From the IMG/VR virus record IMGVR_UViG_3300045825_000531, positions 1 to 56,844 of that record: a stretch of 56,844 bases of DNA; one strand, given 5' to 3'. Source of the DNA: a virus. Of the stretch, positions 21,619 through 37,406 are shown piece after piece (the first letter of the stretch is position 1; each line of letters begins with the position of its first letter). The notes beneath the pieces are model-generated. The model saw only the letters and a program-made list of their open reading frames with translations. It was not told the DNA's origin and searched no databases. The position numbers and the translations under genes were made by a program.

Positions 21619-22966
21619 CATTTATTTTCACAAAATTCGTTACATTTTGTCGTTATCTGCGAGGACAAATAACTGCTTAATATTTCTATTAAGGGAAGAC
21701 TATATCACCACTTTTTAATTCAAATTTGGTAGGGAATTAAAAAGGCTCACCACTTCGGATTCACTTGAATCCTACTCTACTAAGGCATTACCCGTTCGAT
21801 AGTCGTTGGACCTTCACCTGTACGGTGCTTGGATGCTGATTGTCCAATACTAATAATTTTTAACATTCACGCTTACCTTTTCAAGTTACGTTGTAGTTTA
21901 TTAGTCTCTAAGGATTTTCCAGCAGTTCAATGAGTTTTATGTGCGCCTGAACCGTTTAACATTTTTATTTATTAAAAAAAGATTCCAACAAATCCCTTAT
22001 TTCTATAGAGCTATTTTTATTTTTACTCAAATTTTCTTCCCACGGAATATATTTTAAATTGTTTATAGAACCTATTATGTACGTGGGTATGTTATTTTGG
22101 AACCCATCGTACACACTGACTAAATGGTCTAAATTATATGCACCCTCTATTCCACATCTCCCTCGTTTTTCCCTATCTATAAGTTTATTTTGATGTTTAT
22201 ATGTTTCTAACCACACATAATAAGAATACATCTTAAAATCTTCTCTAGTTTTAGGCTCTAACATATTTCCATTTTTAATTCTAGTTTCCTTCATCTTGTC
22301 TTGAACTTCTTTTAATTTTGCAGGATTAGAAACCCCATATTTTTCAATATTTGTTTCTCTAATGTTTTTAACCATTTTTGATTTTCTTTCTTTAGTCCAA
22401 GGTGTTAATTCATTCATTTGATATTTTGTCATGCATGATGAGGAACAGCAAGAAGAGTATTCGAATCTAGTGGATGAAAATTTAACTTTATTTGTACAAC
22501 ATTTACATTTTACATTTTTAGCTTCAGGAAAAATTAAATCATATATAGTTTTTTGTAAGTTATTTAATGGGAGGTCTAAAGCGATTATATATTTTTTAAC
22601 AGTTTGTGAAAAACTTCTAAGTTTGTACTGTTCAGAAGAAGTTAAAAACTCATTATATAATGATTTTATATTAGATATAATTTTATCTTCACTAATATCA
22701 CATTTTACAGAGCATTTATATCCTCTGTAAAATGAAAGAAATTTCATTTCTTTCCCACATTTAGGGCATTTATTGCTTACGTTAAAATATTCATTGTAAT
22801 CTTTTTCAGATAATATTACTTTATGATGCTTTAAAATACCCGTAGCTTGTTTCGATGTTATGTTTCCATCTATAAAATTCTTTATTACCTGCATTTTTTG
22901 TTCTGATAACATATTCACCTACCACAATGTTTATGTTATTTATTAATACAAAACCAATATTTTTTG
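21619..22966 (-). mobile_element. Group I intron in the tail sheath gene
   Basis: 1,348 nt between sheath exons, minus strand. The upstream exon ends in T and the intron ends in G, as group I introns require. Core elements near the 3' end, in order on the minus strand: a P-like segment CTGCTGGAAAATCC at about 21912-21925, an R-like segment CCAACGACTA (21800-21809) and an S-like segment GATATAGTC (21698-21706). GACTA of R and TAGTC of S can form P7. The endonuclease ORF fills the 5' half, ahead of the core. Subgroup (IA-like) and exact borders are inferred from restored protein homology. Confidence 0.85.
21965..22918 (-). CDS. Intron-encoded HNH-type homing endonuclease
   Basis: 317 aa, GTG start (an ATG follows two codons later). 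Cys pairs CPKCGKEM and CKCC...CCSSSC predict zinc ribbons; EKYGVSNPAKLKEVQDK is a DNA-binding helical module seen in phage homing enzymes; LDHLVSVYDGFQNNI with a following NLKYIPWEEN and a later N-x-x-K form an HNH-like nuclease core. It probably cuts intron-less sheath alleles and spreads the intron. It starts about 48 nt inside the 5' splice site. Confidence 0.8.
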   Translation of the reverse strand: MNMLSEQKMQVIKNFIDGNITSKQATGILKHHKVILSEKDYNEYFNVSNKCPKCGKEMKFLSFYRGYKCSVKCDISEDKIISNIKSLYNEFLTSSEQYKLRSFSQTVKKYIIALDLPLNNLQKTIYDLIFPEAKNVKCKCCTNKVKFSSTRFEYSSCCSSSCMTKYQMNELTPWTKERKSKMVKNIRETNIEKYGVSNPAKLKEVQDKMKETRIKNGNMLEPKTREDFKMYSYYVWLETYKHQNKLIDREKRGRCGIEGAYNLDHLVSVYDGFQNNIPTYIIGSINNLKYIPWEENLSKNKNSSIEIRDLLESFFNK

Positions 22967-33282: not shown

Positions 33283-33846
33283 ATGAAATGGATTATTGAT
33301 AAAGTAGTTGGTGAATTTGATTACGGTCATAATGTTTGGACTCAAGAACTCGATGAAGAGTTGAGTTGTGGTAGTCAATGTAAATGTAAATGGCGTCATG
33401 GTCATAGAGGAAAAGTAGTAGCTTATTTAGAAGCAAATGAATTATCCGGATCTTCAAAGAACATGGTGGTGGATTTTAATGATATGAAGATAATGACTAA
33501 ATTCATTGACAGTACTTTAGATCACAAATATTTAATTGATATTAATGACCCAGCTAATTTTGATACCTTTTCACATTTTTGGGTTGATGGATCTTTCAAA
33601 CAGGTTTTAGTTAAAATGCCGGAAGGTCATTACTTAATAGATCCTATTTTTTGGAAAGATTTAGACCCAATTCTTCAAACTAAATATGAAAGTTATGTGA
33701 TTCTCGATTTTGTTCCAACATCTGAAAATCTTAGTAAATGGATGTTTGAAGTTATGTCTATGAAAATAGATAGCACTGGAGTTAAAGTTCATAAAATTGA
33801 ATGGTATGAAACACCAAAATCTCGTGCTACTTATTATGGGGATTAA
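33283..33846 (+). CDS. QueD-like 6-carboxytetrahydropterin synthase
   Basis: 187 aa. DYGHNVW (zinc His), C-K-C-K-W-R-H-G-H-R-G-K (catalytic Cys and zinc H-x-H), VVDFNDMK, LDHKYL and PTSENLSKW match the PTPS/QueD family throughout. QueD makes the pterin precursor of 7-deazaguanines used in queuosine or in phage DNA modification. Other pathway genes are not in the window. About 50 residues longer than minimal QueD because of an insert after residue 85. Confidence 0.85.
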   Translation: MKWIIDKVVGEFDYGHNVWTQELDEELSCGSQCKCKWRHGHRGKVVAYLEANELSGSSKNMVVDFNDMKIMTKFIDSTLDHKYLIDINDPANFDTFSHFWVDGSFKQVLVKMPEGHYLIDPIFWKDLDPILQTKYESYVILDFVPTSENLSKWMFEVMSMKIDSTGVKVHKIEWYETPKSRATYYGD

Positions 33847-34588
33847 CTCTTTTTAATTCATTTATTTTCCATCCTAAAAGTTTTACTTTAGATGGAAATA
33901 TATGGAAACTATTATCTTTTGAGCTTGTAGGCGATATTATTCCTCTATTAACCCAATTTCTTAATATGTTTATAGATAGCTCATTTTCTTCTGCGAAAGA
34001 TTTTAGATTTCCGTGAATGAAGTAATCATTATTTTTATTATCGGTTATAATATAAATTTTCGCCGAAGGATTAGAAGAACCTTTGACTCTATTAGACAGT
34101 TCTAATTTTCTTTGTTCTCCTTTTTTGCTATCCCATTGTTTAGTTTTTATCATATCAGATAAATGTGCTCTATTTTCGTCATTATCCCAAAATGTATTAT
34201 TCCATATTCTCATATCTTCAGAACCTCTTCCATCTCCTCCGTCGGTTATATTGGTGAGAGGGCCTGAGTCAAGAATAAGTCTACCTATTTTAGATATTAA
34301 ATATTTTTCTTTGTCTTTAACAAAGCCATTTTCACTATCTTTATTTAGGAAGATAGTAATATCTTCTATAGAAAAATGTTTTAAACAATTTCTAAGTTTA
34401 TTAGATTTTCTTGTTCTAGAATGAGGTAACTCATATATGTGATTTTTGTATCTATTTAATTTACCTTTCCCAACATAGAAAGGTTCATAAAGAAAAGAGA
34501 AATTTAAACCTTCGTAATGATAATTTCCTGGTTTATTCAAATCTACGAATATATAGTTATAGTATGAGTTTTGTGATAAATATTGCAT
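33827..34588 (-). CDS. GIY-YIG homing endonuclease (Seg-like)
   Basis: 253 aa, minus strand, inserted between queD-like and uvsX. YYNYIFVDL and PFYVGKGKLNR form the GIY-YIG core, with H-I-Y-E-L downstream and DKEKYLISKIGR carrying the catalytic Glu region. The C-terminal half has a NUMOD-type DNA-binding module (N-L-K-S-F-A-E-E-N-E-L-S). Late promoter and structured leader upstream. Overlaps the queD-like 3' end by 20 nt. Free-standing, so it probably promotes its own spread into flanking loci. Confidence 0.85.
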   Translation of the reverse strand: MQYLSQNSYYNYIFVDLNKPGNYHYEGLNFSFLYEPFYVGKGKLNRYKNHIYELPHSRTRKSNKLRNCLKHFSIEDITIFLNKDSENGFVKDKEKYLISKIGRLILDSGPLTNITDGGDGRGSEDMRIWNNTFWDNDENRAHLSDMIKTKQWDSKKGEQRKLELSNRVKGSSNPSAKIYIITDNKNNDYFIHGNLKSFAEENELSINILRNWVNRGIISPTSSKDNSFHIFPSKVKLLGWKINELKRVNPHNK

Positions 34589-34659
34589 GCTGCAGATTCC
34601 TTGGTTTGTAGAGACTATAGTGAGGCCTAATTCACGTGATAGTCTTTTTATTATTTATA
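34570..34659 (-). promoter_or_regulatory. Conserved homing-gene leader, copy 2, with late promoter
   Basis: Minus strand: exact TATAAATA at 34652-34659, then GACTAT, variable loop, ATAGTC, TCTACAAACC, an AGG element and ATCTGCAGCATGCAATATTTAT over the start codon. Near-identical to the leader at 30206-30295 except in the loop. Confidence 0.65.
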
Positions 34660-34679
34660 AAATTATTTAAAGGAATTTA

Positions 34680-35534
34680 ATGTCATTAATCGACAGACTA
34701 AAAAAGAGTTCAAAAATCGACCAAGTTGCAGTATTTAGTAAATCTACAATGTGTTTACCAAAAGATTTTATTCAAACCAAGATTCCACTGTTGAATCTTG
34801 CGTTATCAGGTGATGTAGATGGTGGGTTAACATCAGGATTAACAATCATTGCAGGTCCTAGTAGACATTACAAATCAAATTATGGGTTGTCAATGGTATC
34901 GGCATTCCAAAAGAAATTCCCCGAAGGAATTGTTATTTTTTATGACTCAGAATTTGGTAGTACTGAGGATTATTTCAAAGCAAATGATGTAGATCCTGAG
35001 CGTGTATTGCATTGTCCAATTACTAATATCGAAGAACTTAAATTTGATATTATGAATCAGATTGATACTTTTGAAAAGAATGATAAAATCATGTTCTTTA
35101 TTGACTCAATTGGTAACCTTGCGAGTAAGAAAGAGGTTGAAGATGCGTTGAAAGAAAATGCTGCTGCTGATATGACCCGTGCTAAGCAGTTCAAATCATT
35201 GTTCCGTATGGTAACTCCTCACCTCACGCTAAAAGATATTCCTATGGTTGCGATTAACCATACTTATCAATGTGGGACAGAAAAAATGACCGTAACCACC
35301 CCAGACGGTAAAGTATCTATTAAAGATATTAAACAAGGTGATATAGTTCTTACGACTAACGGTTATGAAGAAGTAATGTTCACCACTATTGGTGAGAATG
35401 CTTTTATAACCGAAATAGAACTAGAGAATGGTGATATTTTAGAATTTACCGAAGGTCATAGATTTATGGTTAATGGGGAATGGAAATATGTAGCCGATTT
35501 AGAAGTAGGTATGAGTATTGATAGTGTTTCATAA
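34680..35534 (+). CDS. uvsX: UvsX recombinase N-part fused to split-intein N-half
   Basis: 284 aa. Residues 1-197 are T4 UvsX/RecA-like: Walker A GPSRHYKSN, Walker B MFFIDSIG, ending in VAINHTYQ. Residue 198 is Cys1 of an intein N-half of 87 residues: CGTEKMTVTTPDGKVSIKDI (block A), TEGHRFMV (block B with T-x-x-H), then WKYVADLEVGMSID and stop. The other half lies at 36386. Trans-splicing would restore HTYQ-TQEMFSKT, the order of T4 UvsX, giving a recombinase of about 349 aa. Confidence 0.93.
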   Translation: MSLIDRLKKSSKIDQVAVFSKSTMCLPKDFIQTKIPLLNLALSGDVDGGLTSGLTIIAGPSRHYKSNYGLSMVSAFQKKFPEGIVIFYDSEFGSTEDYFKANDVDPERVLHCPITNIEELKFDIMNQIDTFEKNDKIMFFIDSIGNLASKKEVEDALKENAAADMTRAKQFKSLFRMVTPHLTLKDIPMVAINHTYQCGTEKMTVTTPDGKVSIKDIKQGDIVLTTNGYEEVMFTTIGENAFITEIELENGDILEFTEGHRFMVNGEWKYVADLEVGMSIDSVS

Positions 35535-35544
35535 GTATGATTAA

Positions 35545-35552
35545 CATAAATA
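35545..35552 (+). promoter_or_regulatory. Late-promoter-like element
   Basis: CATAAATA, one mismatch to TATAAATA, 27 nt before the homing gene inside the split uvsX locus. Confidence 0.4.
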
Positions 35553-35578
35553 ATAGTATATAAAATTAGGAGTATACT

Positions 35579-36376
35579 ATGTTTAGGTTAATGATTAAAA
35601 CCTCAAATCAAGGTTTAAAATATCTATGTGTTACAAAAAGAGATGATTATGAGGAATATAAAGGTTCTGGTAGAGATTGGAAACAACATTTATCCATCTA
35701 TGGAGATGATATAACTACTTTAGTTTTATATGAAACGGAATCTTCTATTGAACTATCAGATGTTGGGATGTTTTATAGTAATTTTTATGACATAGTAGAT
35801 TCCAAAGAATGGGCTAATGTTGTTAAAGAAGAAGGATATAAACATTTTAATAGATTTAATCATTGGTGTGTTTATGATAATTCTGTTAGTGATAAGATTT
35901 CAGAAGCACAAACTAAGATGTTTCAAAAAATGTCCAAAGATGAAAAAGCTGAATATACTTCTAGGTGGAGAAAAGGTTCTGAAATATGGAGAGAGAATTT
36001 ATCTCAGGAAGAATATGTGATATATTGTTTGAAGTTAAGCGAAGCTCAGAAAATGTATTATCAAAATATGGATGAAGATGAGCGAATTAAGCTATCCGAA
36101 AAAAATAGGAATATGCGTTTAAATATGTCTGAAGAAAGTAAACAATCAAGGAAAGAAAAAATTCAAGAAGTTTATGCTACAGGTAAACATCAACATATTT
36201 TCGATAAATTTAGTGAGGAGAGACAAGGAGGTAACAACCCTTGCTCTAAAAAAGTATCTATCCAAGGGGTTGTTTATGGATGCATAAAAGATGCTTGCGA
36301 CGAGTTGAATATAACAAGGGCAATCTTAAATGGTAGATTAAAATCAGAAAAATATCCTGATTATATAAGAATTTAA
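35579..36376 (+). CDS. Homing endonuclease-like gene inside the split-intein locus
   Basis: 265 aa with a good ribosome site (AGGAG). KYLCVTKRDDYEEYKGSGRD with WKQHL resembles the short N-terminal domain of phage Seg/GIY-YIG-related enzymes; a Lys/Glu-rich helical linker follows (KLSEAQKMYYQNM), then a C-terminal NUMOD-like module (VSIQGVVYGCIKDACDEL). No catalytic motif is certain. It sits between the intein halves, the arrangement described for fractured genes with split inteins (Dassa and colleagues, 2009). Confidence 0.65.
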   Translation: MFRLMIKTSNQGLKYLCVTKRDDYEEYKGSGRDWKQHLSIYGDDITTLVLYETESSIELSDVGMFYSNFYDIVDSKEWANVVKEEGYKHFNRFNHWCVYDNSVSDKISEAQTKMFQKMSKDEKAEYTSRWRKGSEIWRENLSQEEYVIYCLKLSEAQKMYYQNMDEDERIKLSEKNRNMRLNMSEESKQSRKEKIQEVYATGKHQHIFDKFSEERQGGNNPCSKKVSIQGVVYGCIKDACDELNITRAILNGRLKSEKYPDYIRI

Positions 36377-36385
36377 AGGAATAAA

Positions 36386-36949
36386 ATGAAAATTAAAAGT
36401 ATTACTCACAATAAACGAAAAGAAACAGTTTATGATTTTGAGACTCCATCTCATTCATATATTTTAGGAAATGGATTAATTTCTCATAATACCCAAGAAA
36501 TGTTCTCAAAAACAATTGTATCAGGTGGTACGGGTATTATGCTTTCAGCAAACACTGTATTGATTATCGGGCGTTCTCAGAACAAAAAAGGAACTGAGTT
36601 AGAAGGTTATACATTTACTATCAATATTGAAAAATCACGTTTCGTTAAAGAAAAATCTAAGTTTCAAATTGAAGTTGCGTTTGATGAGGGTATTGTCGAA
36701 TACAGTGGTTTATTGGATGATGCAGTCGAAGGTGGTTATGTTGATAAACCTAAAGTTGGTTGGTATACTCGACCATGTGTTCCTGATGATAAAAATTATC
36801 GTGAGAAAGATACAAAAACTGAAGAATTTTGGACACCGGTATTTGCAAACACAGATTTCAAAAAATACCTAACGAAAAAATATAAACTATCAACAGATTT
36901 TTTACCTTCATTAGAAATTGATGAAATTGTTGATGAAGATGACATTTAA
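36386..36949 (+). CDS. uvsX: Split-intein C-half fused to UvsX C-part
   Basis: 187 aa. Residues 1-35 are an intein C-half: ETVYDFETPSHSYILGNG (block F, with catalytic Asp) and LISHN (block G, terminal His-Asn). Residue 36 is Thr, the +1 nucleophile, followed by TQEMFSKTIVSGGTG and the rest of UvsX to its acidic tail (EIDEIVDEDDI). It has its own SD (AAAGGA) and ATG, so it is a separate protein. The C-extein of 152 residues is full length compared with T4 UvsX. Confidence 0.93.
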   Translation: MKIKSITHNKRKETVYDFETPSHSYILGNGLISHNTQEMFSKTIVSGGTGIMLSANTVLIIGRSQNKKGTELEGYTFTINIEKSRFVKEKSKFQIEVAFDEGIVEYSGLLDDAVEGGYVDKPKVGWYTRPCVPDDKNYREKDTKTEEFWTPVFANTDFKKYLTKKYKLSTDFLPSLEIDEIVDEDDI

Positions 36950-37406
36950 AAATCTTGTAACTGAAAAAGGTACATATGCAGCTGTTAAGGTTTCTCCTAC
37001 AGCTGCCGGTAATATTATAGACACAGCAAAAAATTTAGGAATTCCTAATCTAATAAACCCCTCAGATATTCATTGTACATTACTTTATTCAAGAAAACAC
37101 GCTCCTTTATCTGGTAGTATTGATGTTGATTATGATGCATTGATTTCAAATTTTGAATTGTTTGGTGATAACAAAGAAATATTAGTAATAAAACTATTAT
37201 CAAGTGATATTAAGGAAAGACATAAGTTTCTAATGGATACATATGATGCAACTTATGACTATGATGAATATATACCTCATATCACATTATCTTATAATAT
37301 TGATAAATTTGATGTTAACAGTATTGATATAAATGCATTTAATAATTCAGATTTTAAATTCATATATGAATACTATGAAGATTTAGATCTAACAAAAAAT
37401 TTATAG
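36939..37406 (+). CDS. Acb1-like 2H phosphoesterase (anti-CBASS candidate)
   Basis: 155 aa. Two H-x-T motifs, DIHCTLLYS (His45) and YIPHITLSY (His114), 69 residues apart, plus GTYAAVK near the N-terminus. Length, spacing and flanks resemble phage Acb1, which degrades cyclic nucleotide signals of CBASS defence. The start MTFKNLVTE also fits a capsid-targeting sequence, so the enzyme may be injected with the DNA. Overlaps the end of uvsX by 11 nt; an ATG two codons earlier is possible. Confidence 0.62.
   Translation: MTFKNLVTEKGTYAAVKVSPTAAGNIIDTAKNLGIPNLINPSDIHCTLLYSRKHAPLSGSIDVDYDALISNFELFGDNKEILVIKLLSSDIKERHKFLMDTYDATYDYDEYIPHITLSYNIDKFDVNSIDINAFNNSDFKFIYEYYEDLDLTKNL

What the first reader, a model, noticed from the sequence alone, without database searches (positions are those of the whole stretch)
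34680..36949. uvsX broken into two genes by a split intein with a homing gene between them
The N-gene ends with a 87-residue intein N-half (Cys1, T-x-x-H) and the C-gene begins with a 35-residue C-half (block F Asp, terminal His-Asn, +1 Thr). The exteins join exactly as in T4 UvsX (HTYQ/TQEMFSKT). A complete homing-type ORF with its own ribosome site separates them. This is the fractured-gene layout known for gp41-1, NrdJ-1 and IMPDH-1; a UvsX case with naturally short halves would be a useful new split intein.
Basis: partly seen in the sequence, partly recalled or inferred. Interest (0 to 1): 0.9.

Follow-up and report, generated by a model that had tools for sequence, protein, structure and literature searches.

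The report
Phage recombinase split by trans-splicing intein
In this uncultured T4-like phage the recombination gene uvsX is broken into two genes by a split intein, with a homing-endonuclease gene lodged between them; it is a real and well-formed new case of a known arrangement, and its relatives show that the same gene is broken at several sites, sometimes twice, in many other phages.

Summary
Window 34680-36949 encodes UvsX residues 1-197 plus an 87-aa IntN, a separate 265-aa endonuclease ORF with its own ribosome site, then a 35-aa IntC plus UvsX residues 198-349. Best PDB match of the joined halves is the gp41-1 split intein (E 1.3e-7), split at the same point. A close relative (L081/L082) has the intact gene and empty site; synonymous divergence from it peaks over the N-extein and first 32 codons of the C-extein, as gene conversion around a homing element would leave it. 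The same site carries split inteins in seven other contig lineages with other endonucleases (HNH, canonical GIY-YIG), one with the endonuclease deleted but the gene still split. The window's endonuclease has a GIY-YIG-like predicted fold and an I-TevI-like DNA-binding end. Novelty is smaller than claimed: fractured uvsX is common at a second site 13 residues downstream, including about 19 cultured phages, and the halves are of ordinary size. Beyond the window: alleles of one intein that are split with endonuclease, split without, and re-fused; and contigs with uvsX in three pieces, one with an 11-residue middle extein. Trans-splicing itself is inferred, not shown.

The parts
34680..35270 (+). 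UvsX N-extein, 197 aa (SD AAGGA 34670-34674)
   Evidence: phrog_97 E 9e-63; 96% aa identity to the intact UvsX of L081
35271..35531 (+). Intein N-half, 87 aa; Cys1, block B TEGH; net charge -11; stop TAA 35532-35534
   Evidence: 64-65% identity to site-a IntN of L083 and L001; gp41-1 match; charge
35568..35572 (+). Shine-Dalgarno-like AGGAG of the endonuclease gene
   Evidence: read directly
35579..36376 (+). Free-standing homing-endonuclease-like gene, 265 aa: GIY-YIG-like N-domain, I-TevI-type DNA-binding C-end
   Evidence: Pfam I-TevI_DNA-bd 34.5 bits, above cut-off 27; PDB 1i3j E 2.8e-4; N-domain model pLDDT 76 matches GIY-YIG/Seg-like viral models; homologs within other split uvsX inteins
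36376..36380 (+). Shine-Dalgarno-like AAGGA of the C-half gene, touching the endonuclease stop codon
   Evidence: read directly
36386..36490 (+). Intein C-half, 35 aa, block F VYDFETPSH, ends His-Asn; net charge +2
   Evidence: TIGR01443 intein_Cterm 19.3 bits, above cut-off 15.6; 74-76% identity (with 20 aa of extein) to L083/L001
36491..36946 (+). UvsX C-extein, 152 aa, +1 Thr; stop 36947-36949
   Evidence: Pfam T4_UVSX_C E 5e-15; 3io5 alignment
33827..34588 (-). Second GIY-YIG-type gene just upstream of uvsX, absent from L081/L082
   Evidence: Pfam LEM-3_GIY-YIG E 7e-5, below cut-off; in L081 the PTPS gene is followed directly by uvsX

Best explanation
uvsX has been invaded, at the codon after HTYQ in the loop-L2 region of the RecA fold, by a class-1 intein that is split. 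The two UvsX pieces are translated separately; IntN (acidic) and IntC bind, fold into one Hint domain and trans-splice, giving a 349-aa UvsX and two free intein fragments. The endonuclease gene sits where a contiguous intein would carry its endonuclease domain; it is translated on its own and probably cuts intein-free uvsX, so that repair copies intein plus endonuclease (with flanking DNA) into the recipient. Shown by sequence: anatomy, intact motifs, empty-site relative, mosaic tract, same-site relatives, endonuclease turnover. Inferred: trans-splicing, cleavage and homing.
For: All catalytic positions present; motif tally at this site 7/7 TxxH, 7/7 HN, 7/7 +1 Thr (Cys1 was part of the search pattern there, so not an independent tally). 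Joined halves match gp41-1 with the same split point. Exteins under purifying selection against the intact L081 gene: dN about 0.04 with dS saturated in the N part. Fraction of synonymous sites changed against L081: 0.63-0.70 over the N-extein, 0.64 over the first 32 C-extein codons, then 0.22 and 0.13; nearest flanking genes 0.32-0.40 upstream and 0.21 downstream, i.e. a foreign tract around the element. Site-a inteins are one clade (100/98), and the window groups with L083 and L161, which hold HNH-like endonucleases; so the endonuclease was most simply exchanged while the split intein stayed. L001/L002 (99% identical) keep uvsX split with the endonuclease reduced to a remnant or deleted. At site b one intein exists split with endonuclease, split without it, and fused in frame, hard to explain unless both states give working UvsX. 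T4 precedent: SegA, a GIY-YIG enzyme beside uvsX, cuts uvsX (PMC2988022).
Against: No biochemical or expression data. Endonuclease catalytic residues are not recognisable: GIY and YIG motifs are degenerate (LMI, YLC) and the catalytic Arg and Glu cannot be placed, so it could be inactive. Profile comparison with a canonical GIY-YIG protein was inconclusive and no PDB fold match was significant. The foreign tract also abuts the second endonuclease gene upstream of uvsX, which may share responsibility for it; further upstream (gp44 and the next gene) synonymous divergence is again high (0.54-0.56), so the genome is mosaic in general.
Confidence: 0.87

Rival explanations
1. The two UvsX pieces work as a non-covalent two-chain enzyme, and the intein halves are decaying passengers that no longer splice.
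For: Split phage enzymes can work unspliced: the MobE-split NrdA of Aeh1 and split gene 43 of phage 25 (PMC2988022).
Against: All splice-site residues are conserved here and at this site elsewhere. The break lies in the DNA-binding loop region, and unspliced protein would carry 87 and 35 extra residues there. At site b, fused alleles of the same intein exist.
Confidence: 0.07
2. Pseudogene: the insertion inactivated uvsX and the phage relies on host RecA or another recombinase.
For: T4 uvsX mutants are viable with reduced yield (own knowledge), so loss is conceivable.
Against: Both exteins are open, have ribosome sites and show few amino-acid changes (dN about 0.04) despite saturated silent sites in the N part; the arrangement recurs in independent lineages and in cultured phages at site b.
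Confidence: 0.03
3. Assembly artefact: an endonuclease gene joined wrongly into a contiguous intein.
For: The window is a metagenomic contig; no reads were available.
Against: Split inteins at the identical site with separate genes between them in L083, L161, L165, L167, L168 and L171; each gene in the window has a start codon and ribosome site, and IntN has its own stop.
Confidence: 0.02
4. The split intein is real and splices, but the endonuclease no longer cuts; the element is now inherited only vertically or by general recombination. (A variant of the best explanation, so the confidences overlap.)
For: Degenerate catalytic motifs in the N-domain; endonuclease loss with retention of the split is seen in L001/L002 and L200-L205.
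Against: The ORF is intact, and the family recurs, full length, at other uvsX intein sites in other phages, which suggests recent mobility.
Confidence: 0.3

Closest known systems
Fractured genes with split inteins of Dassa et al. 2009 (gp41-1, NrdJ-1, IMPDH-1 class)
   Same: Conserved phage DNA-metabolism gene broken by a split intein with a free-standing endonuclease gene in between; same split point as gp41-1.
   Different: The gene is uvsX; the endonuclease is GIY-YIG-like with an I-TevI-type DNA-binding end, not Vsr-like. The paper is not in the held library, so whether uvsX was among its eight enzyme types is not verified.
uvsX site-b split inteins of cultured T4-like phages (e.g. ELT1, HY03, TG1, PM2, PspYZU05)
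   Same: Fractured uvsX with an endonuclease gene between the two parts.
   Different: Insertion 13 residues downstream (VSGG/TG); separate intein clade, IntN about 30% identical; block B is SxxH instead of TxxH.
VidaL and other atypically split inteins with a short IntN
   Same: Naturally split. Own recollection, not verified here, is that VidaL inteins were found in uvsX.
   Different: VidaL has a 16-aa IntN (PMC13014065); the window has the canonical 87/35 split. The P-loop-site inteins of L102 and L246 (IntN 14 and 12 aa by my annotation) look like that type.
T4 SegA
   Same: GIY-YIG endonuclease adjacent to and cutting uvsX (PMC2988022).
   Different: Free-standing beside the gene, not inside a split intein. 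The window has such a neighbour too, on the minus strand at 33827-34588.

Membership tests
Class-1 intein (Hint), naturally split | Cys (or Ser) at intein position 1 | tested here: met
   Cys198 of the N-gene, codon 35271-35273
Class-1 intein (Hint), naturally split | Block B T-x-x-H and C-terminal His-Asn with a nucleophilic +1 residue | tested here: met
   TEGH, HN, +1 Thr; conserved in 7 of 7 site-a inteins tallied
Class-1 intein (Hint), naturally split | Homology of the whole Hint domain to a known intein | tested here: met
   gp41-1 6qaz E 1.3e-7 over residues 5-122. Each half alone is below the Pfam cut-off; IntC passes TIGR01443
Class-1 intein (Hint), naturally split | Trans-splicing activity | not testable with these tools
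   needs expression
Fractured gene (split intein with free-standing endonuclease) | Enzyme coding region broken exactly at an intein site, intact exteins on both sides | tested here: met
   3io5 alignment runs through the junction; intact allele L081
Fractured gene (split intein with free-standing endonuclease) | Separate endonuclease gene between the halves with its own start and stop | tested here: met
   35579-36376 with AGGAG
Fractured gene (split intein with free-standing endonuclease) | Vsr-like endonuclease (seen in about half of the original loci, from memory of the abstract; optional, not defining) | tested here: not met
   I-TevI DNA-binding domain and GIY-YIG-like fold
GIY-YIG homing endonuclease | GIY-YIG domain fold | tested here: met
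   Model pLDDT 76, beta-beta-alpha-beta-alpha; named BFVD matches at E<1e-3 are NUMOD3, Seg-like, group I intron and GIY-YIG endonucleases, TM 0.64-0.74; no significant PDB match
GIY-YIG homing endonuclease | GIY and YIG motifs, catalytic Arg and Glu | tested here: inconclusive
   Motifs degenerate (LMI, YLC); relatives L163 and L167 have YFG; catalytic residues not assigned
GIY-YIG homing endonuclease | Site-specific cleavage of the empty allele | not testable with these tools
   needs purified protein

The most novel reading that the evidence does not exclude
uvsX of T4-like phages is a hot spot where endonuclease-driven gene fracture is recurrent, reversible and cumulative: separate split-intein clades at neighbouring sites, endonuclease families that move between them, re-fusion of split inteins into contiguous ones, and genes in three pieces assembled by two trans-splicing reactions. 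L193 would be a natural case of an IntC-(11 aa)-IntN middle protein, which must avoid pairing with itself and being cyclised.
Probability: 0.6. Interest if true: 0.75.

Novelty: new member of a known kind. Interest (0 to 1): 0.5.

Why it matters
It adds a clade of canonical split inteins at a uvsX site not found in the cultured phages searched, with natural sequence diversity for protein-ligation tools. More broadly the surrounding alleles show gene fracture by homing elements in stages (empty, split with endonuclease, split without, fused), which bears on how split inteins arise and disappear. The interrupted gene is the recombinase that phage homing itself uses (PMC2988022), so spread of the element and function of its host gene are tied together. 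Cultured phages with the sister arrangement make it testable in E. coli K-12.

Tried and rejected
Promoter and terminator scans were at chance level and carry no weight; the T4-late motif TATAAATA is not above chance over the window (9 found, 11.35 expected). Searching IMG/VR with the endonuclease alone found no relative, and its N-domain alignment was too variable to search with; its homologs came through intein searches. No site-a IntN relative was found in bacterial/archaeal genome contigs. The full-length endonuclease model was poor (pLDDT 60), so only the N-domain was remodelled. Profile comparison of its N-domain with a canonical GIY-YIG protein was inconclusive. Literature: no held paper joins 'split intein' with 'UvsX'; the key 2009 paper is not held. 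Considered and rejected: chance motif match, assembly error, pseudogene.

Full report
WHAT IS THERE. The reading is correct at the stated coordinates. Gene 1 (34680-35534, 284 aa) is UvsX residues 1-197 followed by an 87-aa intein N-half starting with Cys and containing T-E-G-H. Gene 2 (35579-36376, 265 aa) is complete and has AGGAG six bases before its ATG. Gene 3 (36386-36949, 187 aa) starts nine bases after gene 2's stop, with AAGGA overlapping it; it opens with a 35-aa intein C-half ending in His-Asn, then Thr and the UvsX C-extein. Family searches agree: UvsX-like phrog_97 (E 9e-63) for the N part, T4_UVSX_C (E 5e-15) for the C part, intein_Cterm above its cut-off, and I-TevI DNA-binding domain for gene 2. 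Joining the halves in silico gives 122 aa whose best solved relative is the cyanophage gp41-1 split intein (6qaz, E 1.3e-7), with the break at the same place. Joining the exteins gives 349 aa aligning across the junction to T4 UvsX 3io5 at E 1e-114; T4 has HTYE where this phage has HTYQ.

EMPTY SITE AND FOREIGN TRACT. L081 and L082 are the nearest relatives found. They have an uninterrupted uvsX of 350 aa between the same neighbours, a PTPS-family gene and an Acb1-family gene. N-exteins are 96% identical in protein. Synonymous change against L081 is uneven: 0.32-0.40 of sites in the three genes just upstream, 0.63-0.70 across the N-extein, 0.64 in the first 32 codons of the C-extein, then 0.22 and 0.13 in the rest and 0.21 in the next gene. 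The intein with its gene therefore lies in a block from a more distant donor that ends about 100 bases downstream of the insertion. That is what co-conversion during homing leaves. Two cautions: the block begins next to a second GIY-YIG gene (33827-34588, minus strand, absent from L081), which may have contributed; and further upstream (gp44-type gene and the next, 0.54-0.56) divergence is high again, so the genome is mosaic in general. Protein change across the block is small (dN about 0.04), so the exteins are under purifying selection.

SAME SITE ELSEWHERE. Split inteins at the same UvsX position occur in L083 (142-kb contig), L161, L165, L167, L168, L171 (a diverged RecA-like recombinase) and L001/L002; L166 holds the C side only. 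L083, L161, L165, L167 and L168 have related HNH-like genes between the halves (Pfam HNH matches for L161 and L083 are weak); L171 has a canonical GIY-YIG gene. L002 keeps only the tail of the HNH-type gene and L001, 99% identical around it, only a short spacer of under 70 bases between N stop and C start, yet both remain split. Site-a inteins form one clade (100/98) in which the window is sister to L083 and then L161, so the window's endonuclease most simply replaced an HNH gene at an existing split. No contiguous intein was seen at site a in this sample. The site-a IntN has no uvsX match in 50,697 phage records at E<=0.01.

THE ENDONUCLEASE. Homologs of the window's gene (38-42% identity, nearly full length) lie inside split inteins at other uvsX sites in L193, L225, L244, L246, L250 and L251, and an N-domain homolog lies just upstream of an intact uvsX in L095/L096. 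Its N-domain is modelled as beta-beta-alpha-beta-alpha (pLDDT 76). The named viral-model matches at E<1e-3 are NUMOD3, Seg-like, group I intron and GIY-YIG endonucleases, though no PDB match is significant. The motifs are degenerate, so activity is uncertain.

SITE B AND THE ALLELE SERIES. Thirteen residues downstream (VSGG/TG) a second intein clade is common: 47 distinct split sequences in the tree and about 19 cultured phages, eight of which I checked and found as a recombination-type gene, an endonuclease-type gene and a second recombination-type gene. The search that supplied the contigs kept the best 80 of 165, so this is a sample. One set of near-identical contigs shows all stages: L198, L199, L204, L213 split with endonuclease (1146 nt); L200 (450 nt) and L201, L202, L205 (466 nt) split with the endonuclease deleted; L206, L207, L211 (420 nt) fused in frame, where the former ribosome site and ATG of the C-half gene are read through as EEIM. 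The last step is therefore best read as split to contiguous. It also supports function of the split form, although indirectly.

TWO FRACTURES IN ONE GENE. L193 has uvsX in three coding pieces: N-extein plus IntN, a homolog of the window's endonuclease, then IntC-SMFPTAVISGG-IntN, a second GIY-YIG gene, then IntC plus C-extein. A sibling contig, L262, has only the first fracture, with site b empty, which suggests the order of events. If both inteins work, an 11-residue middle extein is joined on both sides; if its own IntC and IntN paired, it would be cyclised, so the two inteins should be orthogonal. L246 and L250 combine a P-loop-site split (short IntN, 12 aa) with a site-b split. The three-piece reading rests on metagenomic contigs only.

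HOW IT WORKS. Best account: trans-splicing of the two UvsX pieces (about 0.87), with a separate endonuclease that spreads, or once spread, the element by cutting intein-free uvsX. Anatomy, motifs, empty allele, foreign tract and turnover of the endonuclease are shown; splicing and cleavage are inferred.

NOVELTY. The kind is known (fractured genes; key paper not held). A uvsX instance is not singular, given cultured phages. This is a new member: a site-a clade with a GIY-YIG/I-TevI-like endonuclease. The wider picture of uvsX as a multi-site, reversible fracture hot spot is the more interesting result; closely spaced intein sites in one gene are known from haloarchaeal MCM (PMC10643990, abstract).

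Noticed in passing
L193:1900-5865 (sibling L262:2038-4570): uvsX broken twice: three coding pieces, two endonuclease genes, a middle protein of IntC - 11 aa extein - IntN. L262 has only the first fracture.
   Followed up: partly
L246 and L250 (1645-5642): uvsX with a P-loop-site split intein with a very short IntN (12 aa) plus a site-b split intein whose endonuclease is a homolog of the window's.
   Followed up: partly
L198, L199, L204, L213 / L200, L201, L202, L205 / L206, L207, L211: Near-identical site-b inteins as split with endonuclease, split without it, and fused in frame with the old ribosome site and ATG read through as EEIM.
   Followed up: yes
L252-L255, L257-L260: Cultured T4-like phages (UFV01, PspYZU05, HY03, PM2, TG1, VmeM-32, Thanatos-1, ELT1) with site-b split-intein uvsX, annotated only as recombination or hypothetical genes flanking an endonuclease or hypothetical gene.
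   Followed up: partly
window 33827-34588 (minus strand): A second GIY-YIG-type gene between the PTPS-family gene and uvsX, absent in L081; a TATAAATA (T4-late-like) motif lies at 34652-34659 upstream of its start.
   Followed up: partly
window 36945-37406: Acb1 (anti-CBASS) family gene directly downstream of uvsX, E 2.7e-30, also in L081.
   Followed up: no
window 21965-22918 (minus strand): 317-aa ORF with cysteine pairs overlapping the 3' end of the tail-sheath gene by about 100 bases; no Pfam match, possibly another homing-type gene.
   Followed up: no
L102 and L104: Split intein at the UvsX P-loop (GPSRHYK/C) with a 14-aa IntN, an atypical split.
   Followed up: no
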